Assembly: GCF_005862305.2 (NCBI RefSeq)
Contig: NZ_CP054023.1
Location: 372,001 to 436,000 of the forward strand
Source: Rhizobium indicum
GTDB taxonomy: Bacteria; Pseudomonadota; Alphaproteobacteria; Rhizobiales; Rhizobiaceae
Reading direction: 5' to 3'
DNA length: 64,000 bases
The notes below the pieces were generated by a model. The model worked only from the letters and a program-made list of their open reading frames with translations, searched no databases and had not been told where the DNA came from. Made by a program: the position numbers and the translations under genes. Positions 26,829 to 36,423 of this stretch are shown here, in pieces (positions within the stretch are counted from its first letter, which is position 1; every line of letters starts with the position of its first letter).

Positions 26829-27725
26829 ATGGACGAGATATTCGAACAGCTTCTGCACCTTTCTGCACGCACCGAGACGCTGATTGCCGTTTACGATGGT
26901 GATGACCGGCTGCAATACGCCAACGGCGCCTTTCGTTCGGTCTATTTCATCGAGCCCGATGAAACGCCACTCTGGCCGGATCTCATGCGGCGCAATTTTG
27001 AGCTGCGGCGAGGCACGGTCATTCAGACGAGCAATTTCGACGAGTGGCTGCGGTCGACGCAGTCGCGCCGTGGCAAGATCGGCTATCGAGCTTTCGAGAC
27101 GGACCTCTACGATGGCCGGTGGTTCTGGATGACCGAGGCGGTCAAGAAGAACGGTTGGATGTTGTGCATTGCGAGCAACATCACCAGTTTGCGAGCGCAT
27201 GGCAGGACTGTCCGGCAAGATCGCGATCAGGCGATCAAGGCTTCTTACACCGACGAGCTCACAGGTGTCGCCAACCGCCGCTTTGTGATGGCACGCGTCG
27301 ACGACATGCTGGCAGCCGCCCAGCACGGAAACAATGGATGCCTTGCCGTATTCGACATCGACAATTTCAAACACATCAACGATCGGCTTGGTCACCATGC
27401 CGGGGACGTCGTCCTGCGCGATTTTGCGCATCGCATTCATCAGAATGTTCGCCGCAACGATTGTTTTGGGCGGGTCGGCGGAGAAGAATTCCTGCTCGTG
27501 ATGCCGGCAACCGGGCCGGAAGACGCCATTGCCATCGTCGAGTGCATGCTGACGGTGATCCGCTTCTCCCGGCCTCTGCCTGAATCTCCCGACTTCAGCT
27601 ACACCTGTTCTGCCGGCATCGCCGCTTGTGTCCCGTCAGACAGCGCGTCGGACCTTTATCGACGCGCCGATCAAGCACTCTATGCCGCCAAGTTAAGCGG
27701 CCGGGACAGGGTGCGCGCAGCGTAG
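26829..27725 (+). CDS. Diguanylate cyclase with PAS-like sensor domain
   Basis: Cytoplasmic GGDEF protein (298 aa) predicted to make cyclic di-GMP from two GTP. Residues 12-120 form a PAS-like domain (LIAVYDGDDRLQYANGAFRS, then WFWMTEAVKKNGWML). The GGDEF domain begins YTDELTGVANRRFV and has FDIDNFKHINDRLGH. The active-site loop GGEEF is at 217-221 and is intact; the inhibitory I-site RRND at 208-211 is also present, so product feedback is expected. No membrane segment is seen. It is monocistronic, with the coding frame ending before a small convergent gene. Confidence 0.93.
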   Translation: MDEIFEQLLHLSARTETLIAVYDGDDRLQYANGAFRSVYFIEPDETPLWPDLMRRNFELRRGTVIQTSNFDEWLRSTQSRRGKIGYRAFETDLYDGRWFWMTEAVKKNGWMLCIASNITSLRAHGRTVRQDRDQAIKASYTDELTGVANRRFVMARVDDMLAAAQHGNNGCLAVFDIDNFKHINDRLGHHAGDVVLRDFAHRIHQNVRRNDCFGRVGGEEFLLVMPATGPEDAIAIVECMLTVIRFSRPLPESPDFSYTCSAGIAACVPSDSASDLYRRADQALYAAKLSGRDRVRAA

Positions 27726-28574: not shown

Positions 28575-29036
28575 TCACTTGCCGTCTTGATGACCCGAGT
28601 TATCCTCCTCCCGAGGATACTTTTCTTGAGATCCGAGCGTATTGAATCTGTTCCCGACGGCTGAGACGAAGTCATCAAACTTAGGGTTTTCGCGGATCAT
28701 CTCGACGGTTGTTTTGTGCGAGGAATCGGAACCGTGTGTAGAGTAGACGACGCCTTCGTTAGGAAACGTGATTTCACCGTCCGATTTCCGGATTTCGTAA
28801 AGCCTGACCGTTTCGTCAGTATCGCCGTCTAGCGTCCCGGTCACTTTGATTTGGCCAGGGTCCCCCTTTTCTCCCTCGTCAACATCGATGTCGAACGTTT
28901 TGCCGCTCGGTAGTTCCAGGTCTTTGATTTTTTTGCCCTCGCTATCTTCGCAAAAGCCGCCAGCGAGATCGTAAATGGAAAAAACTGAGCACTTCCCAAC
29001 CGTTACTTCAACGAAATAGGTCATCACATTCTCCAT
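28575..29036 (-). CDS. Hypothetical protein, last gene of the YcaO/TfuA cluster
   Basis: Unrecognised acidic protein of about 153 aa. The ATG at 29036 overlaps the TGA of the preceding gene (TGATG), implying translational coupling. A second start at 29024 (MTYFVEVTVGKCSVFSIYDL) has GGAG at a good distance. Beta-strand-like segments (KTFDIDVDEGEKGDPGQIKV, TVRLYEIRKSDGEITFPNEG) precede a polar, highly charged tail. No signal peptide, leader-like motif or cysteine/serine-rich core typical of a RiPP precursor is visible. Codon use is more AT-rich than in the flanking catabolic genes. Confidence 0.7.
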   Translation of the reverse strand: MENVMTYFVEVTVGKCSVFSIYDLAGGFCEDSEGKKIKDLELPSGKTFDIDVDEGEKGDPGQIKVTGTLDGDTDETVRLYEIRKSDGEITFPNEGVVYSTHGSDSSHKTTVEMIRENPKFDDFVSAVGNRFNTLGSQEKYPREEDNSGHQDGK

Positions 29037-29527
29037 CAATCTCGGTTCAAACGACCGTCACGGTGCGCCATCCTCAAGGTGATTGCGTAGGAACTGGGGG
29101 ATCGTTTGCCCGGTAAATTTGCATCAAGGATGAGTGAACGCGCATCACCATAGTTTGTGGTAAGTTCGAGCAACGCAGTCGATGCCCGAATACGCCACAT
29201 TTTGTAACCCAAGCCGTCGAACCCACAACCGACGGCCGGTTTCGGCGATGCTTTCTTAATAAGGAACACGCGATTTGTATCAAATCGATAGCAGTGACCT
29301 TCGAAAGCGTAGCCATAAGCAAGAACAACTGAATACTCTCTTGACTTGTAGGCGTAAGGAACCTTGTCCTCTCGATACAACTGGAGCCGAACCGCGTTGA
29401 GTTGTCCTTCGCCGATGTCGAAGCTCGCGTAATCAAATGTCTCATTCAATTTCACACCATAAATAATCAGAGCGTCAGCCTCGTAACGATCCGTTGCTGG
29501 TGCTGGGACGTCGTCTCTATCTCTCAT
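29036..29527 (-). CDS. Hypothetical protein in the YcaO/TfuA cluster
   Basis: Unrecognised 163-residue protein. GGGAGG five bases before ATG 29527 sets the start. The sequence looks like a soluble beta-rich fold (DALIIYGVKLNETFDYASFD, YKSREYSVVLAYGYAFEGHC) and includes PKPAVGCGFDGLGYKMWRI near the end. The gene follows the peptidase gene with a slight overlap of untranslated sequence (21 bp between stop and start) and is coupled to the next gene through TGATG. Position suggests a shared role with the peptidase and YcaO/TfuA enzymes; what it does is unknown. Confidence 0.7.
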   Translation of the reverse strand: MRDRDDVPAPATDRYEADALIIYGVKLNETFDYASFDIGEGQLNAVRLQLYREDKVPYAYKSREYSVVLAYGYAFEGHCYRFDTNRVFLIKKASPKPAVGCGFDGLGYKMWRIRASTALLELTTNYGDARSLILDANLPGKRSPSSYAITLRMAHRDGRLNRD

Positions 29528-29547
29528 CGATGCCTCCCGAAAAATTG

Positions 29548-30780
29548 TCAAAGAATTCCACGCCACCTCATGCAATCTTCAAGTTGTTGGAGGTATGCAT
29601 TGCCACGCTCCCGATAGCTGGCTTCGAGAAAGGCTTCTGCAGCAGCTGCAAAGGTGATGCTGTCCGGTTCAAGGTAAGCCCATGAGCGCATTACAGCTTC
29701 CCCAACGATATCTCTTGCTTCCTCAAGGGCGGCCTTAGCGGCAAAGTGGCGTAGCTCGTAAGACGACCTGGACGTCCGCATCGCTTCATCCATAAGGGCA
29801 GGCGCTAGCTGTTGCCGCAGATCTGAGAAACGTTTTGGATTGAGATCAGATAGACCGCGTTCGAACAGGAGCGATTGGTAGACCTCAATGAGGCAGTCGA
29901 AGAGGGCCGCAGCAAACGGCTTCGATTGGTCGTGAACCTCGCCGCTAACATCACGCATCTTAAGTGAATTGTTGAACGATCGAAGTTGCTTCTCGTCGCT
30001 TAACTCGGCGAATCTGTCCAGTTCATTGTGCAGGAGAAGATTCCCCTTAGTTCGACGGAGTAGCCGATCAACTGCCGTGTCGAATTGCAGTAGCCCCAGC
30101 AAAGATATGAAATCGGCTATCGATTCATGGTAGGCAAAGAAATCGCAGCCGCGACCGTCTCCCTCAAGAATTCCGAGTTCGCTCAGCAAAATAAGGTGGC
30201 CGATTTCATGAGCGATCGCGTCAAAGTTCAGGGCAAAATATGAAGTCGGCGTTTCTGGCTCGCTCTCGCCCAATTCAAGGAAACCAAATCCGGATTGTGC
30301 GTTCTCCCAGTGTGGAATCCGTGGAATAATCTCAAGACGTTCGACTGTAGGTTCAAAAAACCAGCCTATTGGGTGCCCAACGTAGCTCTCACAAATATCG
30401 AGAACACGACGTGCACAGGCAAAGCTGTGTGTCGAAAGGAAAGCGGGGGAGTCGGGACCGATGTGGTCAAAATGGCCGTCGGGGCCGGGTTCTGCTGGCG
30501 GCCTCAAAACCCCCCGATATGGGGGCAGATTCGGCGATGCGTAAGGGATTTTCGGCTCAATCGGATTTGCGACGTACATCCGGCTGTCCGACGGCCCTGC
30601 GAGAATCGGGCCCGCAGACGCTCCGATCCACACCACCTCGGGCTTTTCATAACCTGGAATAAATGGCGGTTGCGGAAAAATGAGAAATCGGGTTCCCAGT
30701 GACGGCTCGAAAGCTGCCCCACCTGCGCCTTCTGGATGTGTAATCGCATCCAACGTCGCCCCCACCGCTTCATTGCCCAC
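29548..30780 (-). CDS. Gluzincin-type metallopeptidase in the YcaO/TfuA cluster
   Basis: Predicted zinc peptidase of 410 aa. HEIGH at 191-195 supplies two His ligands and the catalytic Glu, and Y-HESIAD at 217-223 supplies the third ligand Glu219 followed by the conserved Asp223, as in thermolysin-like enzymes (Glu there lies 20 residues after the second His; here 24). The N-terminal 150 residues are proline-rich and unlike known families; the C-terminal half is helical. No secretion signal is seen, so cytoplasmic. The best start is GTG 30780, without a clear ribosome site, 23 bp after tfuA. Cleavage of a leader peptide or modified protein is a plausible role but unproven. Confidence 0.75.
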   Translation of the reverse strand: MGNEAVGATLDAITHPEGAGGAAFEPSLGTRFLIFPQPPFIPGYEKPEVVWIGASAGPILAGPSDSRMYVANPIEPKIPYASPNLPPYRGVLRPPAEPGPDGHFDHIGPDSPAFLSTHSFACARRVLDICESYVGHPIGWFFEPTVERLEIIPRIPHWENAQSGFGFLELGESEPETPTSYFALNFDAIAHEIGHLILLSELGILEGDGRGCDFFAYHESIADFISLLGLLQFDTAVDRLLRRTKGNLLLHNELDRFAELSDEKQLRSFNNSLKMRDVSGEVHDQSKPFAAALFDCLIEVYQSLLFERGLSDLNPKRFSDLRQQLAPALMDEAMRTSRSSYELRHFAAKAALEEARDIVGEAVMRSWAYLEPDSITFAAAAEAFLEASYRERGNAYLQQLEDCMRWRGIL

Positions 30781-30803
30781 ATAAGCGATAAAGTATCATA
30801 CCA

Positions 30804-31571
30804 CTACAACGCGCCTTTAGACAATACTGCGTCCGACAAATTGTAGTAATCCATATCGTACGCGAATGCCTCGGTGAGTTTAAATTCGGGACTACATGGT
30901 GGGGCTTCCGTGATGTATTTGTTGCTACTGAGGTATCTGAGTAAACCGATCGCATCAGCTCTCTTCTGGGCTACGAATCCGTTTGCCAGCCAAGCCTTCA
31001 GAGCACCAAGCTGTTCAATAGGCCCGAGACTTACATCGGCGACCGACATGAGTTTATGGAGGCTTCTGGTCATGAAGTGAAGGGAACGTGATAGTTCCTC
31101 AAGTTGCTGGCGGACTTTTCTCTCTATGATGCCTTCACGCTCTGCTCTTTTTAAAGTCATCCTGATGTCGAACAGCGCTTCGCCTATCCCCTTGGAGCCC
31201 ATGTCGGAAGGAGCCATGGGTACCGCGACGTCGGCGTCGTCGGCGAGAACGTTTCTACGATACCATCTGAAGATCAGCCCGTGCCCGGTCATGCCGAATG
31301 GCGCAAGCTCAGCCGCCCGAAGGGCGCCTATGCTTGCCGCACCATAGAGCCGGACCCCCTGCGACATCGCCCAGAGGATTTCTTGATGGCGAACCGCTGG
31401 TGACTGGGCGAATACTCCGTCGATGAGAGCAATTGTGGATGGAGCGTATTGAACCACCGCTCGAACAACATCTCCACACCCTGCGGGAGGGAGGTAGCGG
31501 GCGTCCATGTGCAGCCGTGCCTCAGCGGCGCTAATGGTTGGGCCGAGAAAAATGACGACATCACCACGCAA
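30804..31571 (-). CDS. tfuA: TfuA-like protein
   Basis: TfuA-family protein (255 aa), the partner of YcaO enzymes in making peptide-backbone thioamides, first named from trifolitoxin production in Rhizobium. Family blocks are all visible: VVIFLGPTISAAEARLH, YLPPAGCGDVVRAV, IALIDGVFAQSPAVRHQEIL, GVRLYGAASIGALRAAELA and PFGMTGHGLIFRWY. The start is TTG at 31571 with GGAG seven bases upstream, overlapping the ycaO end by 11 bp, so the two are translated together. The C-terminal 100 residues are less conserved helices. Confidence 0.9.
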   Translation of the reverse strand: MRGDVVIFLGPTISAAEARLHMDARYLPPAGCGDVVRAVVQYAPSTIALIDGVFAQSPAVRHQEILWAMSQGVRLYGAASIGALRAAELAPFGMTGHGLIFRWYRRNVLADDADVAVPMAPSDMGSKGIGEALFDIRMTLKRAEREGIIERKVRQQLEELSRSLHFMTRSLHKLMSVADVSLGPIEQLGALKAWLANGFVAQKRADAIGLLRYLSSNKYITEAPPCSPEFKLTEAFAYDMDYYNLSDAVLSKGAL

Positions 31572-32712
31572 GATGGAACTCCGGATTGGTTTCTAAGGGG
31601 GGAGCAATCACTTTCGCTACATGAAGCGGTATTCGTTCATCGGAGTGTAGATGGACAAGAATTGCCGCCTGAGCGCCCGCAAGCTGAAGAGCCGTCAATA
31701 TCCGTCTTAGCGGATCCTCCAGAGGTCCGTTGTTTACGTCTGTCTGATACGTCCGCTCACCCTTTGCTAACTGGGCCCGCCAACCCGCCAGTTCGGAAGC
31801 CCCGGGATAGCTATAGAGATCGGTCCTAACATCCTCTCGGGCCGCTGAAATGACGCCTAGTCTGGACTGACACGCTTCAAGAAGAGCGCTGGCCAAAGCA
31901 TTATCGTGAGTGAAGGCACATCCAAATCCTTCAGCGGGCAACGGAGCAAACGGCGCTTGCTCCCCATTCTCCATGATATGAACCCAGTAGACGGGGAACT
32001 CATGCGCCGTTGGAATCCGCCAAATGCCAACCCCAAAGCCCGCAGCACGCACCTTGATCACGATTTCGCCGGAAAGCCCTGCGGTAACGGATTGAGTGTT
32101 TATTTGGAAACGGTCAAAGAAATGCGGAGTTTCCAGTGCCGAACAGCGGGCTTGACGCTCCAAAATCTCGAAGCAGGCGTGGAGGACCGCGTGTTGGACG
32201 CTCGCGCTGGCCGCAAGGCCCGATGTATCGCGCGGAACCCACTTTGGGTGAGGGGATGGTATCGTGTAGGCGGTATCCACCAGCCCTAACGGAACTGAGG
32301 TTTTCAGGCCAGAGAACAGATCGACCCCATCTATCCAAGTCAGCGTCTCGGCGGTGTCTCTGACGCCAAGATGTGACCAGAGCCCTTGTTCTTTGCTTTC
32401 GCGAAAGGGCGCCGTGAATATCGAGTCAGGGGCGATCCGTTCTGAAGCCCAACCTTCAAGGGACTCCATTAACGCTGATATTGCGGCCAAGGGAAAAGTC
32501 ATGCCTTTACCTTGGCTTACCGTCACCGACAAAGATTGGGGGCGAACTACCTGAACGACTGGGATTCCGATCCAGTCCAGATTGGTAACCGAGCCCAACC
32601 TTGTGATGCCAAATTCGTTCTTCCGCGCCAAAATCCTCTTCGCTGTCTGCCAAGGATCGGGCAGCGTTCGAAGGTGAGCATCAAAGATGATATTCAGCAG
32701 CCCTTCGTCCAG
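31561..32712 (-). CDS. YcaO-domain protein (TfuA-associated)
   Basis: YcaO enzymes use ATP to activate peptide-backbone amides; with TfuA they are linked to thioamide formation. Domain features include GITRLGSVTNLDWIGIPVVQ, VVRPQSLSVTVSQGKGMTFP, and the ATP-binding helices PLAAISALMESLEGWASERI and HAVLHACFEILERQARCSAL. The frame lacks ATG. TTG 32631 would cut off the conserved stretch TLPDPWQTAKRILARKNEFG, so translation probably begins at CTG 32710-32712, six bases after AGGAGG (32719-32724); this adds 27 residues for a total of 383. No precursor gene is adjacent. Confidence 0.87.
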   Translation of the reverse strand: MDEGLLNIIFDAHLRTLPDPWQTAKRILARKNEFGITRLGSVTNLDWIGIPVVQVVRPQSLSVTVSQGKGMTFPLAAISALMESLEGWASERIAPDSIFTAPFRESKEQGLWSHLGVRDTAETLTWIDGVDLFSGLKTSVPLGLVDTAYTIPSPHPKWVPRDTSGLAASASVQHAVLHACFEILERQARCSALETPHFFDRFQINTQSVTAGLSGEIVIKVRAAGFGVGIWRIPTAHEFPVYWVHIMENGEQAPFAPLPAEGFGCAFTHDNALASALLEACQSRLGVISAAREDVRTDLYSYPGASELAGWRAQLAKGERTYQTDVNNGPLEDPLRRILTALQLAGAQAAILVHLHSDERIPLHVAKVIAPPLETNPEFHLAW

Positions 32713-32732
32713 TTCCTGCCTCCTCTACTCGA

Positions 32733-35717
32733 TCATCCTGGAAAAACGTCCAACTCGCGTCTCGCTCTGTTCGCAAGCCAAGCGGCTTTTTGCCCCTCGG
32801 CAATTCGGACTGCGTTTGCCAGGTCTTTTTTGACAGACGACGGTTGTTTGCTTAAGGCACGCCTCAGTTTCGCGCTGCGCCTGTATAACTCGGGGAGCCA
32901 AAACAATTGGCCGCTGTTACGTCCGACATCGATTGCATATTGCAAGGTTACGAGCGCCTCATCATTTCGGCCAAGCCTTTGGAGGACCTGTGCATGCATG
33001 TCGCTGTGCATCGAGAAATTGTCATCGGTCCCCAATTGTTGCTGAAGCTGAAGGGCATCTTCAAAGCGCTTTCCTCCGTTTCCGTCGGCGGACGTCATCA
33101 TTTCCGCCCACCCGCAGTACATGTTGGCCCTCGCTTCGCTCGCTGCCAGCCCGTGTTTTTCAGCCAGCGACAGCATCTTCTCCCCTAAAGCGTAGACGTC
33201 ATCGTACCTTCCTTGGCACCGGCGAAGTACGATCGCGTAGTAAAGTCCGTGGACCATACTCCCAACGTGTTCGGTGGAGTTAGCCCAATCTAAGCATGCT
33301 TGGATCGCCGATTCACTTGCGCCAATCTCGTTGAGAAGCAGGTAGGAGAGAGCACTCTCGCCCAACCCACATACCTTGGCGTCGTGTCCGCCGAAAAAGG
33401 CGCGGTTTCGAACTGCTCTGTAAGAATCATATAACCCAAGGCCTTTCGCGACGCAGTCGAGACAGAAGCCGTGCTCACCCGCATGAAAGCTGGTGGCCCA
33501 CCCGCAGTGATACGACTGAAGCCTTGTTTCCTGGTCCTCGACGGATTGCATGTCTTCAACAAGGATTCGTGCGCGAGATTGTTGAGTCTGGATATTCGGC
33601 GCTGTGAACCACCATCCCCAATACAAAGGGAAATGCCTCTCCCGAACGGCAGAAGGTTGTTTTCGCAAGAGCTGTGTCGCTCTCGAATAGATCCGTCGCG
33701 CAACTTCGGAGCCTTCCCCTTCAAGCGCAGTTGCAACGACTCCTTGCAGCTTGAGCAGGTTCAAGATGAGGTCAGTGCGATCGGCTTCCCGCGAAGATAT
33801 GTTACTGATCGCCTCGGCGCACAGTGTGAGGGAAACGTTGGCCTCATGCATTGCGGATCGAAGGACGCTGGCCTCCGCCGCTGCCGATGCGAACCTGGCG
33901 GCAGCAACGTGTAAGCCAGCTTCGGCGCACTGCCAGGCAGCTATAGCTGCAGGCAAACTCGGGGTCCGCTCCTGAATCAGAAAGTCTGCAATCCGCCGGT
34001 GTATTCGTCGTCGATCGCTCTTAAGGAGACTTCCGTACGTAGCTTCTTGCATGAGAACATGGCGAAACTGATAGGTGCGGGGAGCCGTTGGCAACGGTTC
34101 AATGATGCCTTGAGAAAGCAGTCGCTCGATGTGGACGTCAACGGCTCGGCGGCTTGTTTCCTCAAGAAGATAGGTGAGCAGGGAGATGCTGAATTCACGA
34201 CCTATGACGCTAGCAAATTGGGCAACCTTTCGAGCATCGCCGGTTGACGCCAACCTTGCGGAGAGCAGATCGTTTAGCGAAGTAACGCCGCCGTCGAGGA
34301 GCAACCCTTTCCATTCCGAAGCAACTTTCCCAAGTGCGTGCCGTCCCCGGAAAAACTCGGCCAACTCTTCGGCGTAGAGTGGCATCCCATCGCATTGGTC
34401 TAGAATGAAATCAGACAAACCTGGAGGGGGACGTTCACCCCAGATGGATGCCACCAGATCCCGGACCGCAGTCGGAGCCAAGCCAGTGAGTTCTATTTCG
34501 GTTGTGGCCGCCAACGATCTCCTTATCCGTGAGGTTTGCAATATTAGGACCGGGAGCTTGTGAGCCAACGAACCAAGGCGATCCATCAACTCGACCGTCA
34601 TCCCATCGGCCCAATGGACGTCCTCGAATACGAGGAGCGTAGGGATAAGGTTGGCATTGCACGTCAGCAGATGAGCGGCGGCTTCGATTACCTCCTGTCG
34701 AAACGCCCGACCAGATAGATCTGTCGTACGGATCTGGCCGGGGTTGCTTGATTTTTGCTCGGCTGTGAACGAAAGGATCGTGGTGGCGGAAGCTTCACTT
34801 ACCTCTCTCTTGGTTGTTTGGAGAGCCTTCAAAAAAGCTTTCGCGTCTCCCTCCCTCAGAGTGGAAGTTCCCACGACGGCCTCAAGAAAGGCAACAAACG
34901 AGTGCAACGGTTGGCTTTCCAGGCGTCTATTGCATTGAAACACCACACTATCGTGCTGAGTCTTCGCCAATCGATCCGCGAATTCCCGGATAAGCTTCGA
35001 CTTGCCTATGCCGGCTTCGCCGACTAGCGCTATCGCGCTTCCGTTACCCACGCAGGCCGCTTCCCAAGCTTTCGAGAGTGCCGTCAGTTCCTTTTCCCGG
35101 CCCCTAATGGGTCTGTTTCGGTCTTGAGGCAGCGCTCCTACAGATGACTCCTCCAATCGGCCGTTGGGTTGCCAAAGACCAGTCGGTTCGTCAAAACCTT
35201 TGAGTTTGGCTTCTCTCAACAATCCGTATCGAAATTTACTGCGCGTCAGCTGATAAGTTGACTCGGCGACGAGCACCGAATTCGGATCGGCCTCTGCCTG
35301 CAGGCGGGCGGCCAGAATTGGCGCCGTTCCTATAATTTCATTGCCTTCAGAGGAAAACACGACGAGGCTCGTTGCGACGCCGACGCGCAACTTGAATGCC
35401 AGTCGGGACTTCGCTTTAGATTTGGCGACAAGCTCAATCAGTTCCAGCGACGACTGAACCGCGCTTTCTGCGGCATCTTCGGCTTGTTCGGGATATCCAA
35501 AAAAGCAGCAGCCACCGTCTCCAAGGCGCTGATGAAGAAAGCCGCCGTGCCTTTTTATGATCGTTTCAGCGTTTTGATGCAGAGCGGAAACGGAACGGAA
35601 AAACTGTTCCGGCTCGCTCTTCAGCAGAAGCTCTGTCGATCCAACTATATCGTAAAATAGGGCAGTTACCTGCCGTCGCTCGCCTGAGAACCGAAATCGC
35701 GCGTCGAGGGTCTTCAT
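32733..35717 (-). CDS. Class III nucleotidyl cyclase-like / AAA ATPase / TPR signalling protein
   Basis: Large soluble protein (994 aa). Residues about 5-180 form a class III cyclase domain with both metal-binding aspartates (TALFYDIVGST and RLGDGGCCFFGYP). An AAA/STAND-type ATPase follows, with GREKELTALSKAWEAA, Walker A GEAGIGKSK and Walker B TLLVFEDVHWAD. The C-terminal half is helical and TPR-like (ALQLQQQLGTDDNF, RNDEALVTLQYAIDVGRNSG). Start 35717 gives MKTLDARFRFSGERRQVTAL; TTG at 35750 is an alternative. It is first in the strand order before YcaO, 20 bp from its proposed start, so it probably senses a signal for the cluster. Whether it still makes cAMP is unknown. Confidence 0.88.
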   Translation of the reverse strand: MKTLDARFRFSGERRQVTALFYDIVGSTELLLKSEPEQFFRSVSALHQNAETIIKRHGGFLHQRLGDGGCCFFGYPEQAEDAAESAVQSSLELIELVAKSKAKSRLAFKLRVGVATSLVVFSSEGNEIIGTAPILAARLQAEADPNSVLVAESTYQLTRSKFRYGLLREAKLKGFDEPTGLWQPNGRLEESSVGALPQDRNRPIRGREKELTALSKAWEAACVGNGSAIALVGEAGIGKSKLIREFADRLAKTQHDSVVFQCNRRLESQPLHSFVAFLEAVVGTSTLREGDAKAFLKALQTTKREVSEASATTILSFTAEQKSSNPGQIRTTDLSGRAFRQEVIEAAAHLLTCNANLIPTLLVFEDVHWADGMTVELMDRLGSLAHKLPVLILQTSRIRRSLAATTEIELTGLAPTAVRDLVASIWGERPPPGLSDFILDQCDGMPLYAEELAEFFRGRHALGKVASEWKGLLLDGGVTSLNDLLSARLASTGDARKVAQFASVIGREFSISLLTYLLEETSRRAVDVHIERLLSQGIIEPLPTAPRTYQFRHVLMQEATYGSLLKSDRRRIHRRIADFLIQERTPSLPAAIAAWQCAEAGLHVAAARFASAAAEASVLRSAMHEANVSLTLCAEAISNISSREADRTDLILNLLKLQGVVATALEGEGSEVARRIYSRATQLLRKQPSAVRERHFPLYWGWWFTAPNIQTQQSRARILVEDMQSVEDQETRLQSYHCGWATSFHAGEHGFCLDCVAKGLGLYDSYRAVRNRAFFGGHDAKVCGLGESALSYLLLNEIGASESAIQACLDWANSTEHVGSMVHGLYYAIVLRRCQGRYDDVYALGEKMLSLAEKHGLAASEARANMYCGWAEMMTSADGNGGKRFEDALQLQQQLGTDDNFSMHSDMHAQVLQRLGRNDEALVTLQYAIDVGRNSGQLFWLPELYRRSAKLRRALSKQPSSVKKDLANAVRIAEGQKAAWLANRARRELDVFPG

Positions 35718-35818
35718 GATAGATCGCCCAGCATCGGAGAAGCCAAGCAAGGACAGCCGATTTGTTGTCCTAATGCAAGCTTTAACTAGGTTTGCTCAAC
35801 TATTTCGAGCGGTCGAAG

Positions 35819-36016
35819 TGAACCGCGCCGGGTTTGCCGGAGGCTCCAACAAAGTGGAGCCGATATGGGCAAGACAACAAACAAGTTTTCCCTGAAGTCC
35901 GTGACCGGGCCATCCGCATGGTGTTGGATCACGAAGCCGAGCGTCCCTCGCGGGGGGCTGCCGTTTCATCTATCGCGGCCAAGATTGGCTGCTCGCCAGC
36001 CACGCTGTACGAATGG
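35819..36016 (+). pseudogene. IS3-family transposase (OrfA) remnant with end sequence
   Basis: The frame reading [20 protein letters not shown] then [27 protein letters not shown] residues is the N-terminal HTH region of IS3-family OrfA. An early frameshift separates a start [11 protein letters not shown] at 35864 from the rest, and the gene breaks off near 36016. TGAACCGCGCCGGGTTTGCC at 35819-35838 resembles the insertion-sequence terminus. From 36017 to 36231 the DNA is unrecognised, probably further insertion-sequence debris. It marks the right border of the YcaO/TfuA block. Confidence 0.78.
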
Positions 36017-36231
36017 AATTCGATTCCGGGCCCACAGGTTGTCCTCGAGGCCCTTGTACGAGCGGAATGCCTGGCGCTCGAACTTGCTCGGTCGATCGCA
36101 GAGGGGTGTCATATCCCGGTTGCTCGTCCGCCAGGTTTGACGTCGATGACCCTCCGCCCGAAGCGCGGTGTTGCGCGTGGAACGAATTGCGGCGTCGGGA
36201 CGTTTGGTAGCGCGAGTTAGAGGAGAATATC

Positions 36232-36423
36232 ATGGGAAGTACTGCAGACAAGATTAAGGGAAAGACGAACGAAGTCGCCGGCAAGGCACGGCAGGCAGCC
36301 GGCAAAGCGGTCGACAATCATGACGAGCAGGCCAAGGGCGCCGTTCAGGAAGCCAAAGGTAAGGCCCAGGTTGCCAAAGGCGACGCCAAAGATGCCGTGA
36401 AGAAGGTTGTCGATAAGGCCTAG
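36232..36423 (+). CDS. CsbD-family stress protein
   Basis: A 63-residue hydrophilic Lys/Ala-rich protein of the CsbD family, MGSTADKIKGKTNEVAGKAR then GAVQEAKGKAQVAKGDAKDA. Family members are induced by general stress and are unstructured or helical; biochemical role unknown. AGGAG precedes the ATG and a strong terminator follows, so it is monocistronic. Confidence 0.92.
   Translation: MGSTADKIKGKTNEVAGKARQAAGKAVDNHDEQAKGAVQEAKGKAQVAKGDAKDAVKKVVDKA

What the first reader, a model, noticed from the sequence alone, without database searches (positions are those of the whole stretch)
28575..35717. Candidate undescribed YcaO/TfuA thioamidation island with a cyclase-AAA-TPR sensor, a gluzincin and two orphan proteins
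Seen: six minus-strand genes, mostly overlapping or 20-100 bp apart, encode (in transcription order) a class III cyclase-AAA-TPR protein, YcaO, TfuA, a HEXXH peptidase and two unrecognised proteins. Known: YcaO with TfuA makes peptide-backbone thioamides in RiPPs such as thioviridamide and in methanogen McrA. Trifolitoxin genes tfxA-G are not seen. No short precursor peptide was found, so the substrate may be one of the two orphan proteins, a distant precursor, or a host protein.
Basis: partly seen in the sequence, partly recalled or inferred. Interest (0 to 1): 0.85.

Follow-up and report, generated by a model that had tools for sequence, protein, structure and literature searches.

The report
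Thioamide-peptide operon with repeat-tailed precursor
This rhizobial gene block looks like a conserved peptide-making operon, found patchily across Alphaproteobacteria, in which sulfur-inserting enzymes probably modify the tail of a neighbouring protein that had not been recognised as the peptide precursor, which makes the long-unknown target of these enzymes testable.

Summary
The six-gene block is real and at the stated place. In relatives it is a conserved five-gene operon: cyclase-AAA-TPR, YcaO, TfuA, gluzincin peptidase, and the first 'orphan' (here orf1). All 80 best relatives kept from one scan (of 418 found) have these five genes in this order. The second orphan (orf2) is a fast-changing extra.

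orf1 is the best candidate for the missing precursor. It is modelled as a confident beta-rich domain followed by a low-confidence tail, and that tail is its most conserved part. In deeper-branching relatives the same domain carries tandem repeats of 4-7 residues that differ by lineage (SGARV, SGGKAY, ANARG, RAVMAS, GMNV, others; 18 arrays), kept at the protein level although their codons are scrambled.

I read it as a thioamidated, often multi-core RiPP family: YcaO/TfuA thioamidate the tail and the M4-like peptidase cuts it free. Thioamidation of orf1 is inferred. Counter-evidence: 8 loci examined carry peptidase and orf1 without YcaO/TfuA beside them. Rhizobial TfuA clusters were catalogued before (Malit 2021), but RiPPER's default 20-120 aa window would miss orf1.

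The parts
32733..35750 (-). Class III cyclase - AAA_16 (STAND-like) - TPR-like protein, 1005 aa (an ATG also at about 35717); probable sensor/regulator
   Evidence: Pfam Guanylate_cyc 6.8e-17 and AAA_16 4.4e-18; NCBIfam TIGR03903 TOMM_kin_cyc 316.9 bits, below its cut-off 705.75 and without the first 281 model positions; first gene in 80 of 80 kept loci
31561..32712 (-). YcaO; tool ORF 31561-32631 from TTG, homologous N-terminus runs up to a CTG at 32712 after AGGAGG
   Evidence: Pfam YcaO 9.8e-41; nearest solved structure 6pe3 MJ1094, 2.3e-11; start comparison
30804..31571 (-). TfuA, sulfur-delivery partner, 255 aa
   Evidence: Pfam TfuA 3.6e-40; nearest solved structure 6xp8, 4.5e-28; Ser of GxxSxGALRAAE kept in all ungapped rows, 98 of 98 and 25 of 25
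29548..30780 (-). M4-like gluzincin peptidase, 410 aa
   Evidence: Invariant HExxH, E219, D223, H283 in 38 sequences; AlphaFold2 mean pLDDT 86; weak Peptidase_M4 match in 7 of 23 members, best 0.0018, none for the window protein
29036..29527 (-). orf1: candidate precursor, 163 aa; leader domain up to about residue 125, conserved tail residues 136-163
   Evidence: Follows the peptidase in all 80 kept loci; AlphaFold2 pLDDT 87-97 for residues 11-120, 53-55 for the last 23; tail conservation and dN/dS
29036..29122 (-). Predicted single core/tail of orf1 (ANLPGKRSPSSYAITLRMAHRDGRLNRD, then stop)
   Evidence: P139 and Y147 100%, G140 98%, R142 95%, G158 89%, H155 87%, R156 86% of 74 aligned sequences
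28575..29039 (-). orf2: small fast-diverging protein, 154 aa, accessory
   Evidence: Iterative search shows homologues at the same place in at least 17 other loci (printout cut), near the window's branch, one of them Mesorhizobium (L071); no Pfam/NCBIfam hit

Best explanation
The block is a RiPP-type biosynthetic operon. orf1 is the precursor: a folded beta-rich N-terminal domain (leader/recognition domain) carries a C-terminal tail. YcaO activates backbone amides of the tail with ATP, and TfuA delivers sulfide from a thiocarboxylated ThiS-like carrier made elsewhere, giving one or more thioamides; Gly/Arg-rich positions are the likeliest sites. The M4-like peptidase then cuts the tail from the leader and, in repeat-bearing relatives, between repeats. 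The cyclase-AAA-TPR protein is a sensor/regulator that switches the operon or perceives the product. In the window's clade the product is a single conserved peptide of about 25 residues. Because that tail is conserved over several families and under purifying selection near the window, a conserved physiological role (signal or cofactor-like) is likelier than a fast-evolving bacteriocin. Shown: gene content, order, conservation, a confident model of the domain, tail conservation, repeat tails, codon scrambling. Inferred: that the tail is the YcaO/TfuA substrate, cleavage by the peptidase, sensor role, function.
For: Five genes in the same order and strand in 80 of 80 loci kept of 418 relatives. 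orf1 and the strong peptidase hit co-occur in the same 18 of 151 Rhizobiaceae genomes. orf1 model: confident domain then low-confidence tail. Median dN/dS 0.09 for the tail against 0.16 for the leader. Lineage-specific tandem repeats of unit length 4-7 on the same leader family in 18 distinct loci, 15 of them with both YcaO and TfuA. Repeat units nearly identical in protein but scrambled in codons: pooled pS 0.66, pN 0.064. YcaO nearest to solved structure MJ1094 (an McrA-type YcaO, recalled) with its Glu motifs aligned. TfuA Ser kept. Precedent: thiovarsolin VarA is a repeat precursor modified by YcaO-TfuA (PMC6511847, passages).
Against: Eight loci examined (L031, L048, L208-L213) have the peptidase and repeat-bearing orf1, seven of them a cyclase hit, but no YcaO/TfuA in the fetched stretch; the L048 genome has no TfuA at all (88% complete). 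L167 has TfuA but no YcaO hit nearby. orf1 (about 150-300 aa) is long for a RiPP precursor. Some repeats match Pfam Pentapeptide (5 of 22 members), so a beta-helix is possible there. No exporter was recognised in the operon. Short peptide genes were not searched for systematically, so another precursor is not excluded. No mass spectrum or expression data.
Confidence: 0.62

Rival explanations
1. Peptidase, orf1 and cyclase form the primary module, and orf1 works unmodified or is modified only in some lineages; YcaO/TfuA is a linked accessory acting on the peptidase, the cyclase or another protein, as in McrA or uL16.
For: YcaO/TfuA-free versions exist (8 loci examined); one such genome has no TfuA. 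YcaO enzymes do modify whole proteins (PMC13063428, passages).
Against: YcaO and TfuA sit between cyclase and peptidase in all 80 kept loci and lie beside the peptidase in 15 of the 18 repeat-bearing loci.
Confidence: 0.18
2. The orf1 tail is a structural element: a pentapeptide-like or other beta-solenoid, or a flexible binding tail, not a released peptide.
For: Pentapeptide models match 5 of 22 members; SGARV resembles the A(N/D)LSG repeat (recalled).
Against: Unit lengths run from 4 to 7 residues with unlike sequences; the window-type tail is not repetitive and is modelled with low confidence.
Confidence: 0.13
3. It makes an antirhizobial bacteriocin of the trifolitoxin kind.
For: tfuA was named from trifolitoxin production (title in the reference list of PMC9670871); peptidase and YcaO relatives also lie side by side on a plasmid of the trifolitoxin producer T24.
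Against: The tfx cluster of T24 is chromosomal (PMC9670871); the tail is conserved over several families instead of diversifying; no exporter or immunity gene was recognised among the six proteins.
Confidence: 0.04
4. It is a Pycsar-like phage-defence island built on the cyclase.
For: PADLOC PycC models match the cyclase part (best 4.6e-11).
Against: No PADLOC hit on the other five proteins; such hits are expected for any class III cyclase; the linkage to YcaO/TfuA is unexplained by it.
Confidence: 0.03

Closest known systems
Thiovarsolin cluster (varA/varY/varT, Streptomyces varsoviensis; PMC6511847, passages read)
   Same: YcaO and TfuA; a precursor with repeated core units containing a basic residue.
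   Different: Actinobacterial; no specific protease in the cluster; VarO heme oxygenase, amidinotransferase and ATP-grasp; here a large folded leader, an M4-like peptidase and a cyclase-AAA-TPR protein.
TOMM kinase/cyclase fusion clusters (TIGR03903; Burkholderia NHLP clusters, PMC2887384, passages read)
   Same: Large cyclase-type protein beside a YcaO enzyme (316.9 bits over residues 22-1000).
   Different: No N-terminal kinase part, below cut-off; TfuA pair instead of a cyclodehydratase-docking fusion; no match of orf1 to NCBIfam precursor models over the window protein.
Methanogen McrA thioamidation YcaO-TfuA
   Same: YcaO nearest solved structure is MJ1094 (6pe3), TfuA nearest is 6xp8.
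   Different: Both below the NCBIfam equivalog cut-offs; linked peptidase and orf1.
TfuA-related gene cluster families of Rhizobium catalogued by Malit et al. 2021 (PMC8120280, passages and section 11 read)
   Same: Very probably includes these loci (over 500 Rhizobium clusters; inference).
   Different: In the text read, no precursor of this length, no such peptidase and no five-gene order is described; it used RiPPER at standard settings, whose default is 20-120 aa (PMC6511847).
Peptidase family M4 (thermolysin-like)
   Same: HExxH, a downstream E/D motif and a later invariant His (family pattern recalled).
   Different: Window protein not detected by the Pfam M4 model; fold search against solved structures could not be run.

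Membership tests
YcaO-TfuA thioamidation pair | YcaO domain over its curated cut-off | tested here: met
   140.6 bits against 25.7
YcaO-TfuA thioamidation pair | TfuA domain over its curated cut-off, adjacent | tested here: met
   136.9 bits against 30; genes overlap
YcaO-TfuA thioamidation pair | Catalytic Ser-Lys pair of TfuA | tested here: inconclusive
   A Ser is invariant in GxxSxGALRAAE; positions of the published pair were not available to me
YcaO-TfuA thioamidation pair | Thioamide on a substrate | not testable with these tools
   Needs mass spectrometry
Thioamidated RiPP | Precursor gene in the cluster | tested here: inconclusive
   orf1 fits by linkage, leader/tail build and repeats in relatives; modification unproven
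Thiovarsolin | Repeat-core precursor | tested here: not met
   The window tail is single; repeats occur only in relatives
Thiovarsolin | VarO-like heme oxygenase in the cluster | tested here: not met
   No such domain among the six proteins
TOMM kinase/cyclase fusion TIGR03903 | Score over the curated cut-off; kinase domain | tested here: not met
   316.9 against 705.75; match starts at model position 282
McrA thioamidation (TIGR03266, NF033432) | Score over the equivalog cut-offs | tested here: not met
   111 against 365; 181 against 235.2
Peptidase M4 (PF01447) | Gluzincin residues HExxH...E...H | tested here: met
   Invariant H191, E192, H195, E219, H283 in 38 sequences
Peptidase M4 (PF01447) | Match to the Pfam model | tested here: not met
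   No hit for the window protein; 7 of 23 members weakly, best 0.0018
Peptidase M4 (PF01447) | Thermolysin-like fold | not tested
Trifolitoxin cluster | tfxA-G genes | not tested
   No Tfx sequences were compared
Pycsar | Cyclase plus a Pyc effector | tested here: not met
   PycC-like hits only on the cyclase, no PADLOC hit on the other five proteins

The most novel reading that the evidence does not exclude
Scattered over the Alphaproteobacteria there is a previously unrecognised class of ribosomal peptides: a common folded leader presents either one conserved core or many copies of a 4-7-residue unit, which YcaO/TfuA thioamidate and an M4-like peptidase releases as short thioamidated oligopeptides perceived by the linked cyclase-AAA-TPR sensor; that is, a protease-stable peptide signalling system with lineage-specific 'words'.
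Probability: 0.2. Interest if true: 0.86.

Novelty: new variant of a known kind. Interest (0 to 1): 0.68.

Why it matters
The substrate of TfuA-associated YcaO proteins was stated as unknown in 2015 (PMC4603692, passages), and the YcaO-TfuA RiPP classes listed in a 2026 preprint (PMC13174530, passages) are thioviridamide-like, thiovarsolins, thiopeptides and chimeric lanthipeptides, to which it adds one from Streptomyces. For 16 of the 51 TfuA places in the 151 Rhizobiaceae genomes sampled, this work names a concrete candidate substrate, its probable modified region and its probable protease. That turns an open annotation question into one co-expression and mass-spectrometry experiment, and it points to peptide mining beyond the usual 120-residue precursor limit.

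Tried and rejected
Rejected or weakened: orf2 as part of the core system (its printout was cut after 18 rows, and in an all-against-all comparison its group held 16 of 120 candidate ORFs); Pycsar defence; TOMM kinase/cyclase membership (below cut-off). The variable residue in TfuA H[KQR]E, which I first suspected of being catalytic, is Arg in the solved homologue 6xp8, so Gln in the window means little. The cyclase keeps its metal Asp residues in 90 of 92 sequences and the Arg in 91, but the usual Asn only in 13, so strong cyclase activity is doubtful (residue roles recalled). Profile searches for orf1 gave no solved structure and no leader-domain family. The window block shows only short pairs of direct repeats, typical of chance. 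Promoter and terminator scans found no more than shuffles. Not done: a systematic search for short peptide genes; a ThiS search. The 80 kept loci are the best of 418, chosen by similarity of the peptidase, so '80 of 80' does not speak for the other 338. In one search, of 127 rows with a full peptidase (duplicates included), 7 had no orf1 by profile: L030 (Nostoc), L190 (found by eye) and L047, L136, L162, L189, L193, where the contig ends close by. For the tree single-tail rows were thinned to one in three. Repeat units were picked by amino-acid pattern, which biases pN down.

Literature: searches found no paper naming this peptidase, precursor or five-gene order; supplements were not readable and subscription papers are mostly not held. 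Papers read as passages only: PMC6511847, PMC2887384, PMC13063428, PMC8692822, PMC8939145, PMC4603692, PMC7136475, PMC9670871, PMC13185837, PMC13174530; PMC8120280 passages plus section 11.
Full report
Observation. The six minus-strand ORFs are at the stated coordinates. Pfam confirms YcaO, TfuA, a guanylate-cyclase domain and AAA_16; the peptidase and the two orphans match nothing. The own genome holds three YcaO genes and three TfuA places, one in each of those regions.

Conservation. A relative of the peptidase lies on 123 plasmid records, 114 of them Rhizobium. In R. leguminosarum and R. etli the neighbours are the same: cyclase, YcaO, TfuA, peptidase, hypothetical protein. A profile scan of one genome per species found 418 relatives and kept the best 80, from Rhizobium, Sinorhizobium/Ensifer, Mesorhizobium, Microvirga, Ancylobacter, Paracoccus, Roseibium and others. 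All 80 have cyclase, YcaO, TfuA, peptidase and orf1 in that order on one strand; in 5 of them one gene shows more than one ORF hit. In 151 Rhizobiaceae genomes the peptidase has a strong hit in 18 (and only weak hits in 5 more), and orf1 is in the same 18 plus a 64-aa remnant in one more. Spread is patchy: in an even sample of the class 15 of 385 genomes matched, 8 of them over the full length; in a phylum sample 14 of 398 matched, full-length ones only within the class. TfuA is in 39 of the 151 Rhizobiaceae genomes at 51 places, 16 of them beside this peptidase (counted by hand from coordinates), so this system accounts for about a third of them.

The peptidase. Invariant residues over 38 sequences include H191, E192, H195, E219, D223 and H283, the pattern of M4-like gluzincins (recalled). 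Pfam M4 matches 7 of 23 members weakly, and a profile search of solved structures touches only angiotensin-converting enzymes (best 0.0028). The AlphaFold2 model is good (mean pLDDT 86, pTM 0.86), but no fold search could be run.

orf1 as the precursor. In the window's clade orf1 ends in a conserved tail, roughly LDANLPG[KNR]RSPxxYAxxMxxAHRxGRL; over 74 sequences P139 and Y147 are invariant, G140 98%, R142 95%. Median dN/dS is 0.09 for the tail, 0.16 for the leader, 0.14 for the peptidase, 0.20 for YcaO and 0.23 for TfuA (20 loci, 41 to 119 pairs scored per gene or part, synonymous sites near saturation, so these are rough). AlphaFold2 gives pLDDT 87-97 for residues 11-120 (beta-rich) and 53-55 for the last 23 residues, where a helix is drawn at low confidence. 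A tail that is poorly determined on its own yet the most conserved part is what a substrate of a modifying enzyme could look like (inference; low pLDDT does not prove disorder).

Repeats. In more distant relatives the same leader family carries tandem repeats: SGARV or SGAKV, SGGKAY, ANARG, GRSSG, SRSGG plus two residues, RAVMAS, GRSDLV, GMNV, GQMVGA, GDMAAR, GQNV and RAMMQS: 18 distinct loci, 15 of them with YcaO and TfuA. One relative (L165) has neither a repeat nor the window-type tail. Unit lengths of 4 to 7 and unlike sequences argue against one common beta-solenoid, although Pfam Pentapeptide matches five members. Within arrays there are 3 to 10 DNA forms but only 1 to 3 protein forms of the unit (even TCC against AGC for Ser): pooled pS 0.66 against pN 0.064 (units chosen by protein pattern). 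So the arrays are old and selected unit by unit, not recent slippage. In a peptidase tree of 55 rows the single-tail (31) and the repeat loci (17) each form one side of a branch with 100/100 support, and full operons with the AAA cyclase occur on both sides (L164, L166, L190, L192).

Counter-evidence. Eight loci examined (L031, L048, L208-L213) carry the peptidase and orf1 with SRSGG/GRSSG repeats, and seven of them a short cyclase-TPR protein (none found in L211, whose orf1 is also split over two frames), but no YcaO or TfuA in the fetched stretch. The genome of L048 has no TfuA (88% complete), whereas the plasmid of L031 has one elsewhere. Either YcaO/TfuA act from a distance or were lost, or orf1 and the peptidase have a function that does not need thioamides. 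A Nostoc plasmid has the peptidase with no orf1, YcaO or TfuA hit.

Enzymes. The YcaO aligns best with MJ1094 (6pe3) and keeps the aligned Glu motifs (roles recalled). TfuA aligns with 6xp8. According to the papers read, TfuA hydrolyses thiocarboxylated ThiS to feed YcaO (PMC13185837, PMC13063428, PMC8939145; passages). No ThiS-like domain is among the six proteins; the genome was not searched for one.

Known versus new. Malit et al. 2021 catalogued over 500 Rhizobium TfuA clusters (PMC8120280) using RiPPER at standard settings, whose default is 20-120 aa (PMC6511847); orf1 is about 150-300 aa in the relatives examined. The passages and section read mention neither this peptidase nor this precursor. 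A 2026 preprint lists the characterised YcaO-TfuA classes (PMC13174530), none of which matches. I therefore call it a new variant of a known kind: a YcaO-TfuA RiPP-type operon with a new precursor family, a new dedicated peptidase and a linked cyclase-AAA-TPR regulator.

Verdict. Observation confirmed; interpretation partly right and extended; substrate assignment strongly suggested by comparative evidence but not demonstrated.

Noticed in passing
L051 (own genome C3:236214-237748) and L052 (own genome C1:3894520-3896075): Two further YcaO-TfuA pairs in the same genome. The first has a 641-aa TfuA frame, which recalls the size of the original trifolitoxin-associated TfuA (72.9 kDa, recalled); the window TfuA is only 255 aa.
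   Followed up: partly
32712 (minus strand): The window ycaO seems to start at CTG where the R. leguminosarum relative has ATG after the same kind of Shine-Dalgarno sequence.
   Followed up: partly
L031, L208-L213: Cyclase-TPR, peptidase and repeat-tailed orf1 without YcaO/TfuA on Rhizobium plasmids; the SRSGG tail is nearly fixed while the leader varies. In L211 (R. leguminosarum RCAM0626) orf1 is split over two frames and no cyclase hit was found.
   Followed up: partly
L030, 7391-16357: On a conjugative Nostoc plasmid the peptidase relative sits beside a PAP2/vanadium-chloroperoxidase-like protein, ferritin-like proteins and a radical SAM protein, with no orf1 or YcaO found.
   Followed up: partly
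L042, L043, L044, L045, L047, L049: TfuA frames of these repeat-clade relatives are about 450-460 aa, some 200 longer than the window's; the extra C-terminal part has no Pfam match (scanned for L042 only).
   Followed up: no
35834-36220 (+), 36232-36423 (+), 26829-27725 (+): Flanking genes: a weak HTH_Tnp_1 transposase-like ORF, a CsbD-like protein and a GGDEF protein; R. etli IE4803 also has a GGDEF gene downstream of its copy of the block.
   Followed up: partly
orf1 of the 18 repeat-bearing loci: By eye, 13 of the 18 repeat-type orf1 proteins end in Asp or Glu after the repeats (for example GNSD, DASD, DDED); many single-tail ones do not.
   Followed up: no
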